A stretch of DNA of 49,629 nucleotides from Calothrix sp. C42_A2020_038 (lineage in GTDB: Bacteria > Cyanobacteriota > Cyanobacteriia > Cyanobacteriales > Nostocaceae). Below are positions 139 through 25,002 of the stretch, one piece after another. Where the stretch lies: positions 1 to 49,629 of the forward strand of contig JACYLQ010000030.1 of the NCBI GenBank assembly GCA_015272395.1. The letters run 5' to 3'. Each line of letters starts with the position of its first letter. Within the stretch, counting starts at the first letter, position 1. The position numbers were made by a program, and so were the translations under genes. The notes below the pieces were generated by a model. That model saw only the letters and a list, made by a program, of their open reading frames with translations. It was not told where the DNA came from and did no database searches.

Positions 139-248
139 TGGCTTAACTAAGAATTACATTATTGCCCAAATATGTTGTTGTATAAGGGTTATAGGAAGAA
201 ATTTATCTATTCAATAAAATAATTTAACGGGATTACCTTGTATTTTCT

Positions 249-359
249 ACTCCAATGGAAATGGATGAGCTAGAAGCATTGTTGATCGAATACGGTATCT
301 TAGATGACGATACCAAGCACGCAGAGATCATCGGTAAACCTGCTGAAGCTACCAAATAA
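249..359 (+). CDS. nifH: nifH 3' segment (C-terminal ~36 codons of nitrogenase Fe protein)
   Basis: Reading from 249 gives [21 protein letters not shown] and ends ...[10 protein letters not shown]-stop at 357-359, the characteristic C-terminus of cyanobacterial NifH. Upstream of ~249 the similarity stops and an in-frame TAA lies at 225-227, so the remaining ~260 codons are not here. The segment has no frameshift or stop, which argues for selection. It lies 130 bp before nifD, the normal nifHDK order. The simplest reading is a nifH interrupted by a DNA element extending beyond the left edge; an inactivated or second nifH copy is the alternative. NifH is the dinitrogenase reductase that passes electrons to NifDK. 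Confidence 0.85.
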
Positions 360-17315: not shown

Positions 17316-18911
17316 TTATGCTGTCCGAAAGCGCGCTAATTCCTCACCTGTTTTTGCATCATGAGCATGAACTGTACAAACGAGACAAGAGTCAAAAGAA
17401 CGCGCGACGTGTCCAACTTCGATTGGGTCGGTTGGGTTTTGAACAGGAGTACCAACCAAGGCTTCCTCAATTGGACCACGCATTCCTTGACTATCGCGCG
17501 GGCCTATATTCCAGTTACCTGGTGTAATAATTTGGTAATTTTTAATTTTGCCACCTTGAATGTCAATCCAATGGCATAGGGCACCGCGAGCTGCTTCAGT
17601 AGCTCCCCAACCATGTCCGTCTTTCTCGGTGGGCTTTACATACCAATCATCATTAAGGCGGAATTCACGTAGGCAGTGTTCTGCTTGTCGATATAGTTTA
17701 ACAATTTCGTGCATTCGTGCGAGTTGTCGGAGGTGAACATTGGCGCCACCCATTTTTTTGAAAACATCGAGAATAAATCCGTCACGGTGCTGCCAAGACT
17801 CACCATGTTTACCACCAGCAACAAGTTGACGGGCAAGAGGTCCAGCTTCAAGTCTACCTTGGTTTTGATGCAGTGCTGCTGTTGACCATGAGTAAGCATT
17901 GTTGAAGTCTTTTTTATTATTTGCACTGGGTTTAGTAATACGGTCGCGTGGGTGAATATCTGTTTCGCTTTCCTCATACCAAGAGTGGGTCATATTCTCT
18001 CGTACAAACCCCTCATCCATCGAAGTGTGAGTATCTGTAAAGCTATCATACACACCACTCTTCATAATCATTGCCGCATTTCGTCCTTCGATAGTCGGTT
18101 TTTGGTATTTAGTCTCGTGTGGTAAATATCCCCAACTTACATACCGTCCAACACCGGCGCCAAATTTGTCGAGTCCAATATCCAAACCCATTCGCCAATA
18201 TAATCCCAAATCAGAATTCCAGTGTTCAGGCTTTTCATTTAGCCAACTCATAAAATCATCGTAAGTACGAATTTCCTCATACCTTTCCAACGAACACCCT
18301 AACCATATAGATTCAATCCAATTGCGCCGGAAAAACTCTAATATTGACCAAGCGCGCGTTATATCGGTCAAAGTTGGGGCGCACATTACACCACCTGGCA
18401 CCATATAACTAGAGTGAGGCCACTGTCCGCCAAATAGTGCGTAAATTTCTACAGGTTTGGCTGAAAGAGTTATACCTTGTTCATAAGACTTACCGATAAA
18501 AGCTGTAAAACGTTTACAAGCTTCCAAATAATAAGGACTGTGACGGTATTTTTGGTGTGTTAAGTCAATTGCAAACAGCCCATAAAAATACCGTGGTATA
18601 CTTTGCAGTGTCTCAGCTAATTGACCAAGGTTACGTGCTAAAATTGCATTACGTGGAACATATGTCCCCCATGCGGTATCAAGTGCCCATGCCGCACTAG
18701 TTAAGTGAGAAGCACCGCAAATTCCACATACACGAGGTGTTACAATTAACCCAGCTTGTGGATCTTTGCCACGCAAAATCACTTCAAACCCACGAAATAG
18801 TTCAGCGTGTGTCCAAGCATTAACTACTTGCCCTTCTTCAATTTCAACACGAACATCTAAATCACCTTCAACTCTACCAACAGGTGAAATATCTAATATT
18901 TGAGTTCCCAT
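17316..18911 (-). CDS. hupL: Uptake [NiFe] hydrogenase large subunit HupL
   Basis: Full-length HupL (531 aa), the catalytic subunit that oxidises H2 released by nitrogenase. The N-terminal nickel motif is RVCGICGASH (C62, C65); the C-terminal motif is DSCLVCTVH, followed by a 16-residue tail (AHDAKTGEELARFRTA) that HupW should remove. The conserved RGxE appears as LFRGFEVILRG. In several heterocystous strains hupL is split by the xisC element; here it is continuous and the interruption lies in hupS instead. It is preceded by a repeat-rich 108-bp spacer after hupS. Confidence 0.98.
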   Translation of the reverse strand: MGTQILDISPVGRVEGDLDVRVEIEEGQVVNAWTHAELFRGFEVILRGKDPQAGLIVTPRVCGICGASHLTSAAWALDTAWGTYVPRNAILARNLGQLAETLQSIPRYFYGLFAIDLTHQKYRHSPYYLEACKRFTAFIGKSYEQGITLSAKPVEIYALFGGQWPHSSYMVPGGVMCAPTLTDITRAWSILEFFRRNWIESIWLGCSLERYEEIRTYDDFMSWLNEKPEHWNSDLGLYWRMGLDIGLDKFGAGVGRYVSWGYLPHETKYQKPTIEGRNAAMIMKSGVYDSFTDTHTSMDEGFVRENMTHSWYEESETDIHPRDRITKPSANNKKDFNNAYSWSTAALHQNQGRLEAGPLARQLVAGGKHGESWQHRDGFILDVFKKMGGANVHLRQLARMHEIVKLYRQAEHCLREFRLNDDWYVKPTEKDGHGWGATEAARGALCHWIDIQGGKIKNYQIITPGNWNIGPRDSQGMRGPIEEALVGTPVQNPTDPIEVGHVARSFDSCLVCTVHAHDAKTGEELARFRTA

Positions 18912-19019: not shown

Positions 19020-19145
19020 CTAAACAGTAAAAAAGTCTTCTTCAGCCCATTCTGGCATCATATCTTTTGATACCATTGTCAAAATTGCATAGCCTGTTTT
19101 ATTTACACCAGGTGGTAAATCTTTTGGTACACCCATAAGTGTTTG
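19020..19145 (-). CDS. hupS: hupS 3' segment (C-terminal 41 codons)
   Basis: On the minus strand 19145 to 19020 reads QTLMGVPKDLPPGVNKTGYA, then ILTMVSKDMMPEWAEEDFFTV and stop, the conserved C-terminus of cyanobacterial HupS. It has no start codon of its own and is cut from the rest of hupS by ~5 kb. Its first five bases on the coding strand, CAAAC, also occur at the end of the hupS 5' segment (24165-24161). Joining there restores ...KTQT-LMGVPKD... in frame and gives a 320-residue protein (279 + 41). Confidence 0.93.
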   Translation of the reverse strand, partial: QTLMGVPKDLPPGVNKTGYAILTMVSKDMMPEWAEEDFFTV

Positions 19146-19164
19146 GCTATATACTACAAGTAGG
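19141..19164. other. Left att-like end of the hupS element
   Basis: The core direct repeat GTTTG (19141-19145) is followed by nine bases and then TACAAGTAGG (19155-19164). The last is the inverted partner of CCTACTTGTA near the right end. The recombinase gene starts 18 bp further in, the usual arrangement for a serine integrase and its attachment site. The exact cross-over dinucleotide cannot be fixed from sequence alone. Confidence 0.7.
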
Positions 19165-19182
19165 TCTTTTTAAGAAAATGCT

Positions 19183-20499
19183 ATGAAGGTAGGATATGCA
19201 AGGGTTTCAAGCCGTCGTCAAGCTGATACGGAAGCCCTAGAGCAACAATGTAGTAGGTTAGAAAAAATGGGGTGCGATCGAGTGATGCTGGATGTGGGGT
19301 CGGGTCGATCAGATCGAAGAAAGGAATTCAATCAGATATTGAAAATGGCGAAAGATGGTCTGATTAAGGAGGTGGTTGTTACCCGTCTTGATCGATTGGG
19401 TCGCAACGTCATCGCCATCAATAGGGCAATGCAGCTATTTAAGGAGTGTGGTGTTAAGCTAACGATGCTCGATTCCCCGATCGGAGATACGGAATCGGCA
19501 TTTGGTTGGCTGACTGCTAATAATATCGCGGGTTTAGCAGAGTTTGAATCGCGATTGTTGGCGGAGCGAGTAGAGCATGGGGTCGCTTACTACCGAGAGA
19601 ATTTAAGATATTTTGGGAATCCACCGTTTGGGTATACCAAAAATAAGGATGGGAGACTGGAGCCACACCCATCTAATTGGCTGATTGCAAAGGAAATTGT
19701 CAAACGTTTGTATTCCAACTCTTACGGATCGATCGCTCGTTGGCTGATAGAAAGTTTTGAAATAAAGATGTATGGTTCAAGCCTACGAAATTGGATACAT
19801 AATCCTTGTCTACGGGGACACACCTTCTACAAATTGAAGGGGGGAGAGGTGGAAAAACACTACAACACCCACGAAGCCCTAATTACCGAGGCTGAGTACG
19901 CAGAATTGGCACGATTGACATCATACCCCGACAAAAAAGACCCAAACAAATTTAAACCCCATATCCTTGGCGGAGTTTTTAAGTGCATGGAGTGTGGGCA
20001 CGCCATGACAAAATCAAAAGCTGGGAAACAATTCCAGTGTGCCCAATATCGCAAATTTGGTAATGCTGGATGTACAAACGGTTGCTCGATTGCTAAGACC
20101 ATTGTCAAAAAAGAAGTAGCCAAAGTCTTAGTCCAACATGCTCGGCAAATCCTCAAATTAACCAACGACCAAACGGTTAATGCTGATGCTGTTGACGATG
20201 AGATGCTAAAGTTGCAATCCCAACTGGACACGCTTCGATCGCTCCCACAAAATGAAGCCATCGACAAGGCGATCGCCGATACCCAAATTCAAATCCAAGC
20301 CCGCAAAGCCCAGAGCAAACAGAGGGCATCCCGTAGCAAAGACGACTTCTTAATTCTTAACTCGTTTCTTCATCCTGATTTCTGGGAATCGTTGTCGGAT
20401 GAGGAATTTAAAGCTGTTGCATCGCGTTTTTTGGAGCGGGTTGAGTTTTCACGTAATCGTAAATTTTCTTTCTTTTTACGTTCTAACTCCAACCCATAG
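19183..20499 (+). CDS. Large serine recombinase, XisF-like, element excisionase
   Basis: A 438-aa serine recombinase. The catalytic resolvase domain covers about residues 1-135, with the nucleophile in YARVSS (S9) and the arginine-rich TRLDRLGR (67-74). A recombinase domain follows (FGNPPFGYTKNKDGRLEPHP; NWIHNPCLRGHTFYK), then a zinc ribbon (C267, C270, C285, C296/C300) and a helical, coiled-coil-like region (about 320-385). This matches XisF of the fdxN element and related excisases. It starts 38 bp inside the left end of the element. It contains HIP1 octamers (20269-20276 and, at its stop, 20500-20507) that I do not see in the flanking host genes. Confidence 0.92.
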   Translation: MKVGYARVSSRRQADTEALEQQCSRLEKMGCDRVMLDVGSGRSDRRKEFNQILKMAKDGLIKEVVVTRLDRLGRNVIAINRAMQLFKECGVKLTMLDSPIGDTESAFGWLTANNIAGLAEFESRLLAERVEHGVAYYRENLRYFGNPPFGYTKNKDGRLEPHPSNWLIAKEIVKRLYSNSYGSIARWLIESFEIKMYGSSLRNWIHNPCLRGHTFYKLKGGEVEKHYNTHEALITEAEYAELARLTSYPDKKDPNKFKPHILGGVFKCMECGHAMTKSKAGKQFQCAQYRKFGNAGCTNGCSIAKTIVKKEVAKVLVQHARQILKLTNDQTVNADAVDDEMLKLQSQLDTLRSLPQNEAIDKAIADTQIQIQARKAQSKQRASRSKDDFLILNSFLHPDFWESLSDEEFKAVASRFLERVEFSRNRKFSFFLRSNSNP

Positions 20500-20618
20500 G
20501 CGATCGCTTTGCGGCGAATAGACCACCAAATCGAATCCTGACTCATAATGTTCTCTGTAGCGCTTAATTAAGCGTAGTTTTTTCTGAGAATTTTTCTGTT
20601 AATAGCGATCGACTTTTG

Positions 20619-20640
20619 GCGGGATTCCCGCAATTTTTTT
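20619..20640 (+). terminator. Terminator-like hairpin downstream of the recombinase gene
   Basis: GCGGG (20619-20623) and CCCGC (20627-20631) form a GC-rich stem with a 3-nt loop, followed by AA and seven T residues. It lies 120 bp after the recombinase stop and can serve as its terminator. Confidence 0.6.
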
Positions 20641-20876
20641 GTGAACGCCACCGGACTTGCTGTGAGTTCATATTTAGCTTTCGATGGGTGAAGCCCAGTC
20701 CACGAACATCGACATCAGAGCGCTTACTCTATGACTCTGGGGAAGGGGTAGCCTATCTAAAAGATGCTGAGAACCCCCGCGTTTCAACCGGGGGATGAAA
20801 GCTAACTCAGGGATGCAGCGCCCGTTGTGTGTCCGGGTTTGGTCTTCCAGTATCTACGCTTTATCTCAACTTCTAC
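20641..20876 (+). other. Decayed insertion-sequence DNA with CCCCC/GGGGG hairpin
   Basis: No intact gene. At 20774-20794 a CCCCC...GGGGG hairpin is embedded in a context (GAACCCCCGCGTTTCAACCG) typical of cyanobacterial IS200/IS605-family ends. It precedes the broken tnpB below, so this stretch is probably the end of one such element joined to the remains of another. Confidence 0.45.
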
Positions 20877-21120
20877 AAAAACAGGCTATGGAAAGAAAGA
20901 ATTAAAGGACAGAGTTCACGCTTGTCCTGAATGTGGTTACACGACTCATCGAGACGTAGCAGCCGCACAAGTGATCCGCAATCGCGGCATCACTGCGCTG
21001 GGAAGCAGCGTAGAAGAAATTGCCTGTGGAGACGGTCTGACGGGGACTGGTAACAGTCTAGTTAAGAGTCTGCGAAGCAGGAAGAAGGGTGGAGAGGCAC
21101 GGCTTCAGCCTGCCTCGTAA
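20827..21120 (+). pseudogene. IS200/IS605-type TnpB, C-terminal remnant
   Basis: About 80 recognisable codons of a TnpB (OrfB) transposon nuclease: KELKDRVHACPECGYTTHRD, then VAAAQVIRNRG, which is the second half of the zinc-ribbon and the final catalytic Asp region (RDVAAAQ). The first CxxC of the ribbon and the entire RuvC core are missing, so the protein cannot be active. The downstream CTTCAGCCGGGGGAGTACTTC (about 21143-21163) resembles the 3' end of IS605 elements. Confidence 0.75.
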
Positions 21121-21246
21121 CATCCTTTGAGAATCCTCCATGCTTCAGCCGGGGGAGTACTTCAATCCAAGATTATCCAAAATATTTTCGATAGTTCCAA
21201 AATCCAGCATTTTTAGAGATTCTGGAAAAGTCTTCATTGCTGGTGG

Positions 21247-21615
21247 ATGTGCGGTCGAATCTCAACCTTATCCTTATTACTTTCGCGTTCGTTAATGAAT
21301 GAGTATCCGCCAAAATTGTCTGTATCTCAGTCAACAGCAGTGTTGGCTGGGTTAGTATTAGATCAGGAACTGATTAAAAGGTTATTGCGGAGTGATGCTA
21401 TGCGCGAGTCTGTAATTTATCAGGATATCCAACAGGAAAGAGCGTTATCGATTGTGATGCGGCAGCTTAGTCGTGAAGTTGGAACTGTTCCACCTGCACA
21501 GTTGTTGAAAATTCAAGCTTTAGATTCAACACAGTTGGATAATTTAGCTGAGGCTTTACTCGATTTTAACGGTTTGGCTGATTTAGAAACTTGGTTAGCA
21601 CAAGATCGAGGCTAA
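21247..21615 (+). pseudogene. Fragment of Rpn/DUF4351 family nuclease-like protein
   Basis: The C-terminal ~70 residues (MRQLSREVGTVPPAQLLKIQALDSTQLDNLAEALLDFNGLADLETWL) match the DUF4351 domain, and the preceding LAGLVLDQELIKRLLRSDAMRESVIYQDI is the usual linker of these cyanobacterial proteins. The N-terminal PD-(D/E)XK/Rpn domain (about 200 residues) is missing. It is probably a relic rather than a working gene, unless it starts at the internal ATG 21295 as a small stand-alone protein. Confidence 0.65.
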
Positions 21616-21785
21616 ATAATCGCTCAACTAGCTGGATGATAAATCGCCAAAGGTTACATTTCCCGCAATGCCGATATTAATCCCAACCCATGCGATCCCT
21701 ATATTTCCCACACCGTTGTTTACTTGATTGCTAATTCCGCCAATCTTCTAAATAATTAGCTTATTAATATCAAGATGGTATAATT

Positions 21786-22028
21786 ATGAGTCCAGAGCAA
21801 GAATTATTAGCAAAGTGGCGTTCCTTACCTAAAGAGAAACAGGAGGAAGTTTTAGATTTTGTTGAATTTCTTCACGTAAAAAACTCTGTTAATAAAGTCT
21901 CTTTAGGAGATAATTTAAGAAAAATTCGTGCCAAAATAGTTGCTTCTGGCGAACCTTTATTGACCCAGGATGAGATTGTAAAAGAAATTGCTAGTCGTCG
22001 TGGGGGATTACGGGAAACAGATGCATGA
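21786..22028 (+). CDS. DUF2281/VapB-like antitoxin
   Basis: An 80-aa protein beginning MSPEQELLAKWRSLPKEKQEEVLDFVEFLHVKN, the DUF2281 signature seen in cyanobacterial antitoxins paired with PIN toxins. The C-terminal half is charged and probably wraps the toxin. It overlaps the PIN gene by 4 bp (ATGA), which is the classic toxin-antitoxin arrangement with the antitoxin first. Inside the hupS element the pair may punish loss of the element. Confidence 0.82.
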   Translation: MSPEQELLAKWRSLPKEKQEEVLDFVEFLHVKNSVNKVSLGDNLRKIRAKIVASGEPLLTQDEIVKEIASRRGGLRETDA

Positions 22029-22429
22029 AGATAACTTTTATTGACTCTGGAGTCCTAGTAACTGCGGCACGTGGTGTGGGAGAAGATTCAGAAAAAGCTT
22101 TGGAAATTTTAGCAGATTCAAGCCGTGAATTTGCTTCGAGTGATTTTGTCAAAATGGAGGTAATACCTAAAGCAATTTATCATCAAAAAACAGCAGAAGC
22201 TGAATTTTACGAATCATTCTTTAGTGCCGTTACTTATTGGGCTAACGATACAGAAAAAGTAATACGAGATGCTTATAATATCGGCTGTCAATATGGTTTA
22301 GCTGCTATGGATGCGTTACATGTTGCAGCAGCTTTGTCAACTAGCGCAGAGGAATTTATCACCACAGAGAAGCCGAATAAACCTATGTTTAGAGTTCCAG
22401 GTATTAAATTAATTTCTATTTTTAATTAA
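22025..22429 (+). CDS. PIN-domain toxin (VapC-like ribonuclease)
   Basis: A 134-aa PIN-domain protein. The acidic active-site residues are visible as D7 (FIDSGV), E45 (KMEVIPKA) and D96 (AAMDALHVAAA), with further acidic or Thr residues in the C-terminal part (FITTEKPN). Such proteins cleave RNA when released from their antitoxin. It is translationally coupled to the upstream antitoxin. It seems intact, so the toxin-antitoxin pair is likely functional. Confidence 0.85.
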   Translation: MKITFIDSGVLVTAARGVGEDSEKALEILADSSREFASSDFVKMEVIPKAIYHQKTAEAEFYESFFSAVTYWANDTEKVIRDAYNIGCQYGLAAMDALHVAAALSTSAEEFITTEKPNKPMFRVPGIKLISIFN

Positions 22430-22921
22430 TTTTTTGTGAATATTCTTAAACCGATTTGTCAGGATACGGACAGCGATTTACTGAACTACCCCATAACTAA
22501 AGTTAGGGGGTTCCAACTTGCATTGCAAGTTTCGTTTGTCCTCTCAGAAATCAAATATTCGCCCTGCTGCATACGCAAAAGTCCAGATATTCAACCATGC
22601 AGTGGCTTGTTTTGCGTACCTGAAAGTCCAAGTTGTTGAGTTATTGCCATTTCAAGAAGTTGAAAGTTTGCCTACCTGACCATTTGTGATACTATTAGAC
22701 AGTAACTGGTTTTGAGTAGCTGGACTTTTGCGTACCTGAAAGTCTGGAACTTCAACAACTCAGACTTTTAACATTTCACCATGCTTCCAAGCAGAGGTTG
22801 CCTTGGATTTGCTGGATCTAATCATTTAACTTTTTGCGTACTCAAAAATTCAGCGATTCAAGTTTTTAGCGAGGCGAGTATCCAAGTACTCAACAACCCA
22901 AACATTCAAGGGGTGTAACTC
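22430..22921. promoter_or_regulatory. Iteron-like repeats (probable centromere/operator) upstream of parA
   Basis: A gene-free 490 bp with four direct copies of TTTGCGTACCTGAAAGTC or variants: 22611-22628, 22667-22680 (TTTGCCTACCTGAC), 22727-22744 and 22833-22851 (TTTGCGTACTCAAAAATTC). One inverted copy (ATACGCAAAAGTCC) is at 22571-22584. In small ParA (type Ib) plasmid partition systems, repeats upstream of parA act as centromere and as operator bound by the RHH partner; that role is inferred here. A short hairpin (CCCCATAACTAAAGTTAGGGG) at about 22490-22510 follows the PIN gene. Confidence 0.7.
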
Positions 22922-23515
22922 ATGATTATCACCGTAGCCTCCTTCAAGGGAGGTGTGGCTAAAACTACCACTGCTATTCATCTAGCTGCCTATCTGCAAA
23001 CCAAAGATGAAACGCTACTGATTGATGGCGACCCCAACCGCTCGGCTAGTAACTGGGCTAAACGAGGAGAGTTGCCGTTTAAAGTTATAGACGAGCGCAT
23101 GGCAGCTAAATATGTCCCTAAGTACAAGTATATTGTAATTGACACCCAAGCCAGACCAGAAAAAGATGACTTGGAAGCTTTAGCTGAAGGGTGCGACCTA
23201 TTGGTACTGCCGACCACTCCTGACGCTTTATCCCTTGATGCTTTGATGCAGACTGTTGATACCCTCAAATCTTTAGGAGCTGACCAGTACCGTATTCTCA
23301 TCACCCGTATTCCACCAAAGCCCAGACGGGACGGCGAAGAAGCACGAGAGATGCTGCTGGAAGCGGGACTACCAACCTTTACGGGCAGCATTCGGGATGC
23401 GGTAGCTTTTCAGAAAGCAGCTTTAGCGGGTGTACCAGTAAATAAGGTGGGAGATGCCAGAGCCAAGATAGCCTGGAAAGATTATGTAGCGGTAGGCAAG
23501 GAGATACTGCAATGA
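22922..23515 (+). CDS. Small ParA-family partition ATPase
   Basis: A 197-aa ParA/MinD-type ATPase with the deviant Walker A motif KGGVAKTT (9-16), the DGDPN switch region and the Walker B-like YIVIDTQARPEKDDLE. It has no N-terminal DNA-binding domain, so it belongs to the short (type Ib) plasmid partition class. It overlaps the next gene by 4 bp. An iteron-bearing region lies directly upstream. A plasmid-type partition ATPase within a gene-interrupting element is unusual. Confidence 0.9.
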   Translation: MIITVASFKGGVAKTTTAIHLAAYLQTKDETLLIDGDPNRSASNWAKRGELPFKVIDERMAAKYVPKYKYIVIDTQARPEKDDLEALAEGCDLLVLPTTPDALSLDALMQTVDTLKSLGADQYRILITRIPPKPRRDGEEAREMLLEAGLPTFTGSIRDAVAFQKAALAGVPVNKVGDARAKIAWKDYVAVGKEILQ

Positions 23516-23907
23516 GCAAGTTTAAAAGTATTCTTACAGCAGCAAAAGACAAATCGGGCGAACTTGAACTTAAGCCAGCGCAGCAGATGGAAACTTTAAT
23601 TGAACAGACACCAACAGAAGTTGAAACTGCACCAATACCGACTCAAACACCTACACGAGAGGATTCCCAACCTCAACCAACGGAGCAAATACCAACTCAG
23701 CCACCCCAGACAAGCGAACCCAAACAGATGGGGCGACCCAAAGGTAAGGGTAAGCGCTCCAACCCTGACTATGAGCAAGTAACGGCTTATATCAAGAGCG
23801 CTACCTATAACAACGTCAAAATCGAACTGTTAAAAGAAGGGAAAAAACGGGAGTTCAGCGAACTGGTGCAGGAAATGTTGGACGATTGGCTGCAAGGGCG
23901 GAGGTGA
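23512..23907 (+). CDS. Ribbon-helix-helix partner of ParA (ParB/ParG-like)
   Basis: A 131-aa protein with a long, proline- and glutamine-rich, probably disordered middle (about 30-80), a basic GRPKGKGKRS patch, and a C-terminal ~45-residue segment (YEQVTAYIKSATYNNVKIEL, then a helix-rich LVQEMLDDWL) that fits a ribbon-helix-helix DNA-binding domain. Being coupled to parA by a 4-bp overlap, it is most likely the centromere-binding protein that recognises the iterons at 22571-22851. Its N-terminus should stimulate ParA. Confidence 0.78.
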   Translation: MSKFKSILTAAKDKSGELELKPAQQMETLIEQTPTEVETAPIPTQTPTREDSQPQPTEQIPTQPPQTSEPKQMGRPKGKGKRSNPDYEQVTAYIKSATYNNVKIELLKEGKKREFSELVQEMLDDWLQGRR

Positions 23908-24144
23908 ACTTTTACATTTGATGAAGTGGAAACACTGAAACAATCAGTCGCTTACGTTACTCGTGAATTCAGTATAGTCTCCTTACCAAAATTTTAAGCG
24001 AGAGCCAAAATAGCACAAAGTAATATTGTGTCAAAGCAGTTTATGTTTAGAAAGTTTAATAATTTTGAAATGCGTACTTTACTATTTTGGCATTTTCCTA
24101 AAAGTTTAGCCCACTAACTACGGAAGAACCAGAATAACAGAGTG

Positions 24145-24165
24145 CCTACTTGTACAGTAAGTTTG
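24145..24165. other. Right att-like end of the hupS element
   Basis: CCTACTTGTA (24145-24154), reverse complement of the left-end TACAAGTAGG, is followed by six bases and the core GTTTG (24161-24165). The core is the last part of the hupS 5' segment on the minus strand (CAAAC). Together with the left end it defines the 5,020-bp excision unit. Confidence 0.7.
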
Positions 24166-25002
24166 AGTTTTAAAAACAGTTCCTGGTTTCAGATCATAGA
24201 AAGGAAACTCTGGTTCAGTGCAACCAATACAAGGCATTCCCACGCGCGTTTTTGAGGAAACACGATTCCAAAGGATGCGGTTACAAGAAGAATGAGTCAT
24301 CGGTCCACGACAGCCAAGGTCATAAAATAGACAACCTTTACGCTGACCAAATTCACCTGTTGAAGCTTTGTAAGCAAAGTGAATATTGCGAGTACAACCA
24401 GTTTGTGTAAAGGTTTTAAAGAAAGTCTGAGGACGATGAAGTTCATCGAAGGCAATATCACCGATGCGTCCGGTGGCAATTGCCACTAAAATCTGCGTTA
24501 TCCAATCAGGGTGTGCGGGACATCCGGGAATATTAATTACAGGTAATCCTGATTTTGCTTTGAAGTCTTTACCTAAAAATCCACCTTCAGAACGTTTGAG
24601 AAACTGTAAACCTTTTGACTCGCTAGGGTTCGGCGCCATTGCTGGTATCCCTCCCCAGGTCGCGCAGTCACCTACAGCCACAATGTAGTTAGCAACTTTA
24701 GATAAGTCAGCTAACCAATCTTTCATTGGACGGTCAGCAAATCGGTTCCATTCACCTGTCCCATTTGGTGCATTAACAACCGAACCCTCAAATACCAAGA
24801 TATCTAAAGGTGTGTTACCCAAGACACAATTCCATAGTAAAGTTTGTAGGTTCTCACCTAATTCTAAACCAAGTGATGGATGCCAAAGCAGATTGATGCC
24901 GAAATCAGCTATTAAATCACAAGCTGTAGGGTCGTTGGCATTTAAAAACGACATGGTGTTCCCAGAACAGGCGCCACCTTGCAGCCATAATACGTTAGTC
25001 AT
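24161..25002 (-). CDS. hupS: Uptake hydrogenase small subunit HupS, 5' segment (279 codons + CAAAC)
   Basis: Starts MTNVLWLQGGACSGNTMSFL and shows the Fe-S cluster motifs of hydrogenase small subunits: GACSGN, VGDCATWGGI, NIPGCPAHPDW, QTGCTRNIHF, RKGCLFYDLGCRGP, and CIGCTEPEFPF. There is no Tat signal peptide, as usual for cyanobacterial HupS. The genuine sequence stops after ...TVFKTQT; beyond that the frame runs into the element and ends after a foreign tail (YCTSRHSVILVLP, stop at 24118-24120). The missing 41 codons are at 19020-19145. HupS carries electrons from HupL via three Fe-S clusters. Confidence 0.96.

What the first reader, a model, noticed from the sequence alone, without database searches (positions are those of the whole stretch)
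19020..25002. hupS is split by a 5,020-bp element; joining at CAAAC restores a 320-aa HupS
Seen: the HupS frame is authentic to ...TVFKTQT (24165) and resumes with LMGVPKD... at 19145-19020. The five bases CAAAC occur at both junctions on the coding strand, and recombination there reads K-T-Q-T-L-M-G-V-P with no gap. A serine recombinase gene sits just inside one end. Known: heterocystous cyanobacteria excise elements from nifD, fdxN and hupL during differentiation. Inference: hupS is switched on here by DNA excision, so uptake hydrogenase would be restricted to heterocysts at DNA level, while hupL, the better-known target, is intact.
Basis: partly seen in the sequence, partly recalled or inferred. 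Interest (0 to 1): 0.85.

Follow-up and report, generated by a model that had tools for sequence, protein, structure and literature searches.

The report
Excisable DNA element splitting hupS
In this nitrogen-fixing cyanobacterium the gene for the small part of the hydrogen-recycling enzyme is cut in two by a 5-kb piece of DNA that carries its own recombinase and should pop out precisely in heterocysts; such elements were already known in this gene, but comparison with relatives suggests they move between species and land again on the same spot.

Summary
Confirmed: hupS (minus strand) breaks at codon 280/281 (24161) and resumes at 19145; CAAAC lies at both junctions, 5,020 bp apart, and joining restores a 320-aa HupS. 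Six congeners carry that stretch unbroken; no second hupS was found. The recombinase just inside one end passes NCBIfam's XisF model; its four closest relatives found, in Calothrix, Tolypothrix and Plectonema, adjoin the same hupS fragment. Four site pairs put the crossover at one CA dinucleotide, and the element ends form an inverted repeat centred on it, as in an attP of a large serine recombinase. So this is most likely a heterocyst excision element. The kind, hupS included, was published in 2016 (PMC4874684: 4 hupS elements, 2 variants). The genome also has a nifH element ending at window 247. Less expected: recombinase and host-gene divergences at this site conflict, so elements seem to have been exchanged between genera and re-inserted; and the cargo includes a plasmid-type partition cassette. 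Excision was not observed; the assembly holds no joined form.

The parts
24161..25002 (-). hupS 5' part, codons 1-280 and the first two bases of codon 281
   Evidence: Pfam Oxidored_q6 and NiFe_hyd_SSU_C
19020..19145 (-). hupS 3' part (codons 282-320 and stop; the repeat copy supplies codon 280-281 letters)
24161..24165 (-). junction repeat CAAAC, 5' side; crossover CA at 24164-24165
19141..19145 (-). junction repeat CAAAC, 3' side; crossover CA at 19144-19145
24145..24154 (+). attP half-site arm CCTACTTGTA, 9 nt from the CA core
   Evidence: 10-base run, symmetric only when centred on CA
19155..19164 (+). attP half-site arm TACAAGTAGG, 9 nt from the CA core
19183..20499 (+). XisF-type large serine recombinase, 438 aa (presumed excisionase)
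   Evidence: Pfam Resolvase, Recombinase, Zn_ribbon_recom; NCBIfam NF041201 XisF 424 bits, cut-off 375
20827..21120 (+). C-terminal remnant of a TnpB-type gene
21247..21615 (+). DUF4351 protein, cargo
21786..22028 (+). VapB/DUF2281-like antitoxin, cargo
   Evidence: below the NCBIfam cut-off
22025..22429 (+). PIN-domain (VapC-like) toxin, cargo
22571..22910 (+). repeats upstream of parA (TTTTGCGTAC at 22610, 22726, 22832), centromere-like by inference
   Evidence: all 3 exact copies in the window lie here, 0.16 expected; the same decamer, on either strand, lies upstream of parA in two Nostocales plasmids
22922..23515 (+). ParA partition ATPase, plasmid type
   Evidence: 79-83% identical to six Nostocales plasmid records
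23512..23907 (+). small partner gene of parA, overlapping it by 4 bases
   Evidence: 57% (over 77 aa) and 40% (over 133) to the gene in the same place on two plasmids
17316..18911 (-). hupL, intact, 531 aa
247..359 (+). nifH 3' fragment behind a second excision element of the same genome (5' part on contig C6)
   Evidence: 13-bp direct repeat CTACTCCAATGGA, join gives 295-aa NifH

Best explanation
A 5,020-bp developmental excision element of the XisF (large serine recombinase) kind sits in codon 280 of hupS. Vegetative cells carry the split gene, whose product lacks the conserved last 39 residues. In differentiating heterocysts the recombinase would join the two ends at the CA dinucleotide, restoring hupS and releasing a circle with a symmetric attP; XisH/XisI of the nifH element in the same genome may act in trans. 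Shown here: anatomy, recombinase family, site symmetry, recurrence at the same codon, maintained reading frame. Inferred: excision, its timing, the XisH/XisI role.
For: Exact join to 320 aa; stretch unbroken in 6 of 6 congeners. XisF equivalog model passed; four Cys of the zinc ribbon invariant among four hupS recombinases. Same codon and same CA in 4 of 4 site pairs compared. Arms symmetric about CA: 14 of 25 matches, run of 10, against 2-10 matches and runs of at most 4 for 16 slid centres; 200,000 random pairs from the element reach these with frequency 0.0016 and 0.0001; the other three sites give 15, 18 and 18 of 25. Detached 3' fragment: 9-13 synonymous against 1 nonsynonymous codon difference from each of 6 congeners; 15 against 3 and 4 against 1 within two pairs of interrupted genomes. 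The missing tail aligns to the last residue of the mycobacterial hydrogenase-2 small subunit (7uur, 7utd). No second hupS. HetR-family gene PF03574, XisH, nifH element with XisH and XisI; xisH and xisI are required for fdxN excision (PMC4874684).
Against: No joined gene or circle junction in the assembly, up to 2 mismatches; a consensus from mostly vegetative cells would not be expected to show it. The insertion is absent from the six congeners, so it may be young, and conservation of the 3' fragment may largely predate it: only 3 synonymous and 1 nonsynonymous codon changes are unique to this genome. The attP arms differ from those of the other three hupS elements. No XisH/XisI among the element's gene products tested. 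In a 22-row tree this recombinase is not grouped with the other hupS ones.
Confidence: 0.85

Rival explanations
1. A selfish integrative element (plasmid- or island-like) uses hupS codon 280 as its attB; it is not removed on schedule, and hupS is simply inactivated in this strain.
For: Insertion absent from six congeners; cargo of partition and toxin-antitoxin genes typical of plasmids; recombinase and host-gene divergences conflict at this site.
Against: Both hupS halves, hupL and the recombinase are open; the same arrangement with open halves exists in three other genomes, G012, G184 and G185; no spare hupS was found; nifH in the same genome has an element too. Being mobile does not exclude developmental excision.
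Confidence: 0.1
2. The 294-aa truncated HupS works without its last 39 residues, so excision is unnecessary.
For: The Pfam matches to the small-subunit domains (residues 12-175 and 196-268) lie wholly in the 5' part.
Against: The tail is present in the six congeners and, detached, in the five interrupted genomes compared, and is similar in the solved mycobacterial enzyme.
Confidence: 0.03
3. Assembly artefact: the two halves are wrongly joined to foreign DNA.
For: Draft genome in 50 contigs.
Against: The ends form a symmetric attP about the same CA seen in three other genomes, with a related recombinase in the same place; both junctions lie inside one contig.
Confidence: 0.01

Closest known systems
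hupS interruption elements of Hilton, Meeks and Zehr 2016 (PMC4874684)
   Same: hupS split by an element with its own recombinase; [quoted passage not shown]
   Different: Four elements in two variants; their positions are in a supplement I could not read. From recombinase types I infer that the variants are the sites near codons 16 and 209, which would make codon 280 a third; not proven
fdxN element and XisF of Anabaena/Nostoc PCC 7120
   Same: XisF-family large serine recombinase (NCBIfam NF041201)
   Different: Target gene; no xisH/xisI found inside this element (they are in the nifH element of the same genome)
hupL element (XisC)
   Same: Same enzyme, partner subunit
   Different: hupL is intact here; by tblastn it looks split near codon 170-220 in NIES-22, FACHB-123 and LEGE 06105
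sigK skin and SPbeta/spsM elements of spore-forming Firmicutes
   Same: Elements excised in a sporulating cell to rebuild a gene (start of abstracts only)
   Different: Different lineage and cell type; not compared by sequence here

Membership tests
Heterocyst gene-interruption (excision) element | Element inside a gene of heterocyst metabolism, flanked by short direct repeats, precise join restoring the frame | tested here: met
Heterocyst gene-interruption (excision) element | Site-specific recombinase gene near one end of the element | tested here: met
   37 bases lie between the 3'-side repeat and the start codon
Heterocyst gene-interruption (excision) element | Excision during heterocyst differentiation | not testable with these tools
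   needs DNA from heterocysts; no joined form in the assembly
Heterocyst gene-interruption (excision) element | Host makes heterocysts | tested here: inconclusive
   Peptidase_S48 (PF03574; the HetR family, name recalled) found, absent from 14 control genomes; its family in the search holds Calothrix and Tolypothrix records; morphology not testable
XisF-type large serine recombinase | Resolvase, recombinase and zinc-ribbon domains; score over the curated XisF cut-off | tested here: met
XisF-type large serine recombinase | attP with half-sites symmetric about a central dinucleotide | tested here: met
   site layout as described in passages of PMC3783163
fdxN-type element | xisH and xisI within the element | tested here: not met
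   not among the seven cargo and recombinase products scanned; the three XisH matches of the genome lie on contigs C6 and C32

The most novel reading that the evidence does not exclude
Codon 280 of hupS is a standing attachment site that circulating integrative elements invade repeatedly: elements there have been lost, exchanged between genera and re-inserted, each keeping the excision that spares the host's hydrogenase. The present one would be a recently captured small plasmid, still carrying partition genes with their centromere-like repeats and a toxin-antitoxin pair, so developmental gene rearrangements would arise from ongoing plasmid traffic rather than from one ancient insertion.
Probability: 0.45. 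Interest if true: 0.6.

Novelty: new member of a known kind. Interest (0 to 1): 0.42.

Why it matters
It adds a compact, well-delimited hupS element, small enough to clone. The abstract of the 2016 survey asks whether such elements were retained ever since their entry or lost and reintroduced; at this site host-gene and recombinase divergences disagree in both directions, which favours reintroduction. The plasmid partition cassette points to where such elements may come from.

Tried and rejected
CAAAC as the recombination core: rejected, since the attP symmetry and three other genomes centre on CA. A second hupS in the genome: none. Joined or circular form in the assembly: none. Circle junction and recombinase relatives among viral contigs: none, so no support for a phage origin there. 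Cargo shared with the NIES-22 (about 55 kb) and NIES-267 (about 110 kb) elements, other than the recombinase: none at E 1e-4, all nine stretches of both elements being in that database; DUF4351 matched only the Cyanomargarita contig L038 (43%). PADLOC hits were to the TnpB remnant only. AlphaFold model of the recombinase: poor (mean pLDDT 57, 4 sequences), not used for a fold search. A first tree of 22 recombinases left this one unplaced within a 10-row clade; with 10 rows the five hupS recombinases group at 92/89, not starred, and this row is long. A first attempt to pull intact hupS from congeners missed three because of my search code and was redone.
Full report
Observation. On the minus strand hupS runs from 25002 to 24161 and continues at 19145-19020. 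CAAAC occurs at both breaks, 5,020 bp apart, and the join gives 320 aa. In 6 of 6 same-genus genomes compared, the last 45 codons are unbroken; five have a 320-aa gene and one (G061) is split near codon 16 instead. The search with the 294-aa product found only this copy in the genome; the joined query at E up to 1 found only the two halves and one 10.9-bit match.

The recombinase. The 438-aa gene begins 38 bases beyond the 3'-side repeat. It has Resolvase, Recombinase and zinc-ribbon domains and scores 424 bits against NCBIfam's XisF model, cut-off 375. In 217 family genomes its three best relatives (61%) lie in G184, G012 and G185, each beside the 3' fragment of hupS and the start of hupL. 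The named collection gives the records that fit them, Calothrix parasitica NIES-267, Calothrix brevissima NIES-22 and Plectonema cf. radiosum LEGE 06105, and adds Tolypothrix sp. FACHB-123, of which I saw only the 3' side. Matching names to handles is mine: contig lengths and coordinates agree for G012 and G185; for G184 the coordinates agree but the contig lengths differ by 100 bases. The next relatives, 47-55%, adjoin nifD in five loci and a hesA-like gene in one; these two genes I named by reading the translations against the window's own nifD and hesA. One further 48% match (G185 contig C250) was not looked at.

The site. In the four genomes with both sides in hand, the crossover common to all is CA in codon 280 (read by eye). 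Placed around that CA, the two ends of the element are an inverted repeat: 14 of 25 positions with a run of ten in this genome, 15, 18 and 18 of 25 in the others. Moving the centre by 1-8 bases either way in this genome leaves at most 10 matches and a run of 4; random pairs from the element reach 14 matches with frequency 0.0016 and a run of ten with 0.0001. That is the layout of a large serine recombinase attP (passages of PMC3783163). This element's arms (TACAAGTAGG) differ from the GTGGTA-type arms of the other three, but the nifH element of the same genome has TACAAGGTAA at the same 9-base distance from its centre (there the centre was chosen as the best of those tried).

Selection. The detached 39-codon fragment differs from each of six congeners by 9-13 synonymous and one nonsynonymous codon. 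Between two interrupted pairs the counts are 15 to 3 (NIES-267, LEGE 06105) and 4 to 1 (FACHB-123, NIES-22); the more distant pairs among the five have 10-14 nonsynonymous codons, with 4-14 synonymous. Only three synonymous and one nonsynonymous change are unique to this genome, so for this strain alone the test is weak. The tail aligns to the end of the solved mycobacterial small subunit.

How common. In the family search 35 of 217 genomes had two or more hupS matches; I listed all pieces for 33 of them, leaving out G093 and G094. Four are split at codon 280 (G000, G012, G184, G185), 19 near codon 13-21 and 2 near codon 209 (G186, G190); G184, G186 and G190 are split twice. Together 22 of 217 genomes have a split hupS; four of these (G013, G015, G016, G019) also have a full-length copy. 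G078 is unclear and not counted. G028, besides an intact hupS, has a copy in two pieces (codons 1-94 and 84-320) with an integrase-like gene beside the 5' piece, judged by eye; it is not counted in the 22. The other 184 genomes were not listed piece by piece, so 22 may be too low.

History. FACHB-123 and NIES-22 have nearly identical hupL (160 codons, 97.1% nucleotide identity, dS 0.13), yet their recombinases are 76.3% identical (dS 1.90). LEGE 06105 and NIES-22 are far apart in hupL (dS 1.85) and in the hupS 5' part (dS 1.82), yet their recombinases are 86.9% identical (dS 0.58). NIES-267 and LEGE 06105 agree (hupL 0.96, hupS 0.81, recombinase 0.92). Vertical inheritance alone does not explain the first two; exchange or re-insertion at the same site does. 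dS values near or above 1 are rough. The five hupS recombinases form one group at 92/89 in a 10-row tree; a 22-row tree left this row unplaced.

Cargo. TnpB remnant, DUF4351, a VapB-like and PIN pair, ParA and a small partner. ParA is 79-83% identical to six Nostocales plasmid records; on the two I looked at, a small gene follows it directly and is related to the one here. The decamer TTTTGCGTAC occurs three times in the window, all within 320 bases upstream of parA (0.16 expected in the window). On those plasmids it lies upstream of parA three times (opposite strand) and twice, with two and one further copies elsewhere in the 8.6-kb stretches; of the 95 loci then held, L042 and L079 have it too. 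This looks like a plasmid partition cassette; no replication gene was recognised among the products scanned.

Context. The genome has a HetR-family gene, three resolvase-family genes and three XisH matches. One resolvase-family gene sits in nifH, whose 3' end is at window 247-359; the join over a 13-bp repeat gives 295 aa, and XisH and XisI follow it. XisH and XisI are required for fdxN excision (PMC4874684), and XisI is described as a likely directionality factor (passage of PMC4853749). nifD and hesA are intact in the window.

Known or new. Hilton et al. 2016 (PMC4874684; abstract, part 1 of Results, part 1 of Discussion and passages seen) list hupS with four elements in two variants and report that the Rivularia PCC 7116 hupS recombinase is of the tyrosine type. 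The split near codon 209 in G186 holds a gene with a weak, below-cut-off phage-integrase match, and that near codon 16 a serine recombinase, so I infer that those are the two published variants and codon 280 is a third; this is not established. Five library searches showed no other paper that I recognised as being about hupS elements. Of the listed papers that hold both kinds of terms I looked at passages of three: PMC3610870 (splits nifD, nifH1 and hupL, hupS named as one gene), PMC2821919 and PMC4853749 (no cyanobacterial hupS element in the passages). Verdict: a new member of a known kind, with an informative history.

Noticed in passing
window 247-359; L057 14667-15454: nifH of the same genome is also split (repeat CTACTCCAATGGA); its 5' side runs to the end of contig C6 and its 3' side is at the start of this window's contig, so the element likely links the two contigs.
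   Followed up: yes
L038, L091, L092 (G038, Cyanomargarita calcarea): hesA is split near codon 50 beside a 55% relative of this recombinase, halves on two contigs, exact junction not resolved; hesA is not in Table 1 of PMC4874684.
   Followed up: partly
L094, L095 (G028): A second hupS copy lies in two pieces about 25 kb apart, overlapping at codons 84-94, with an integrase-like gene beside the 5' piece; an intact hupS exists elsewhere in that genome.
   Followed up: partly
G184 C1:6990313-7142951: hupS split twice, at codon 280 (about 110 kb) and near codon 16-20 (about 42 kb).
   Followed up: partly
L036, L037, L042: hupL looks interrupted near codon 170-220 in three genomes that also have the codon-280 hupS recombinase and fragment.
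   Followed up: no
genome G000: 6.5 Mb against 8.7-12.4 Mb for the six congeners searched: a small genome for its genus.
   Followed up: no
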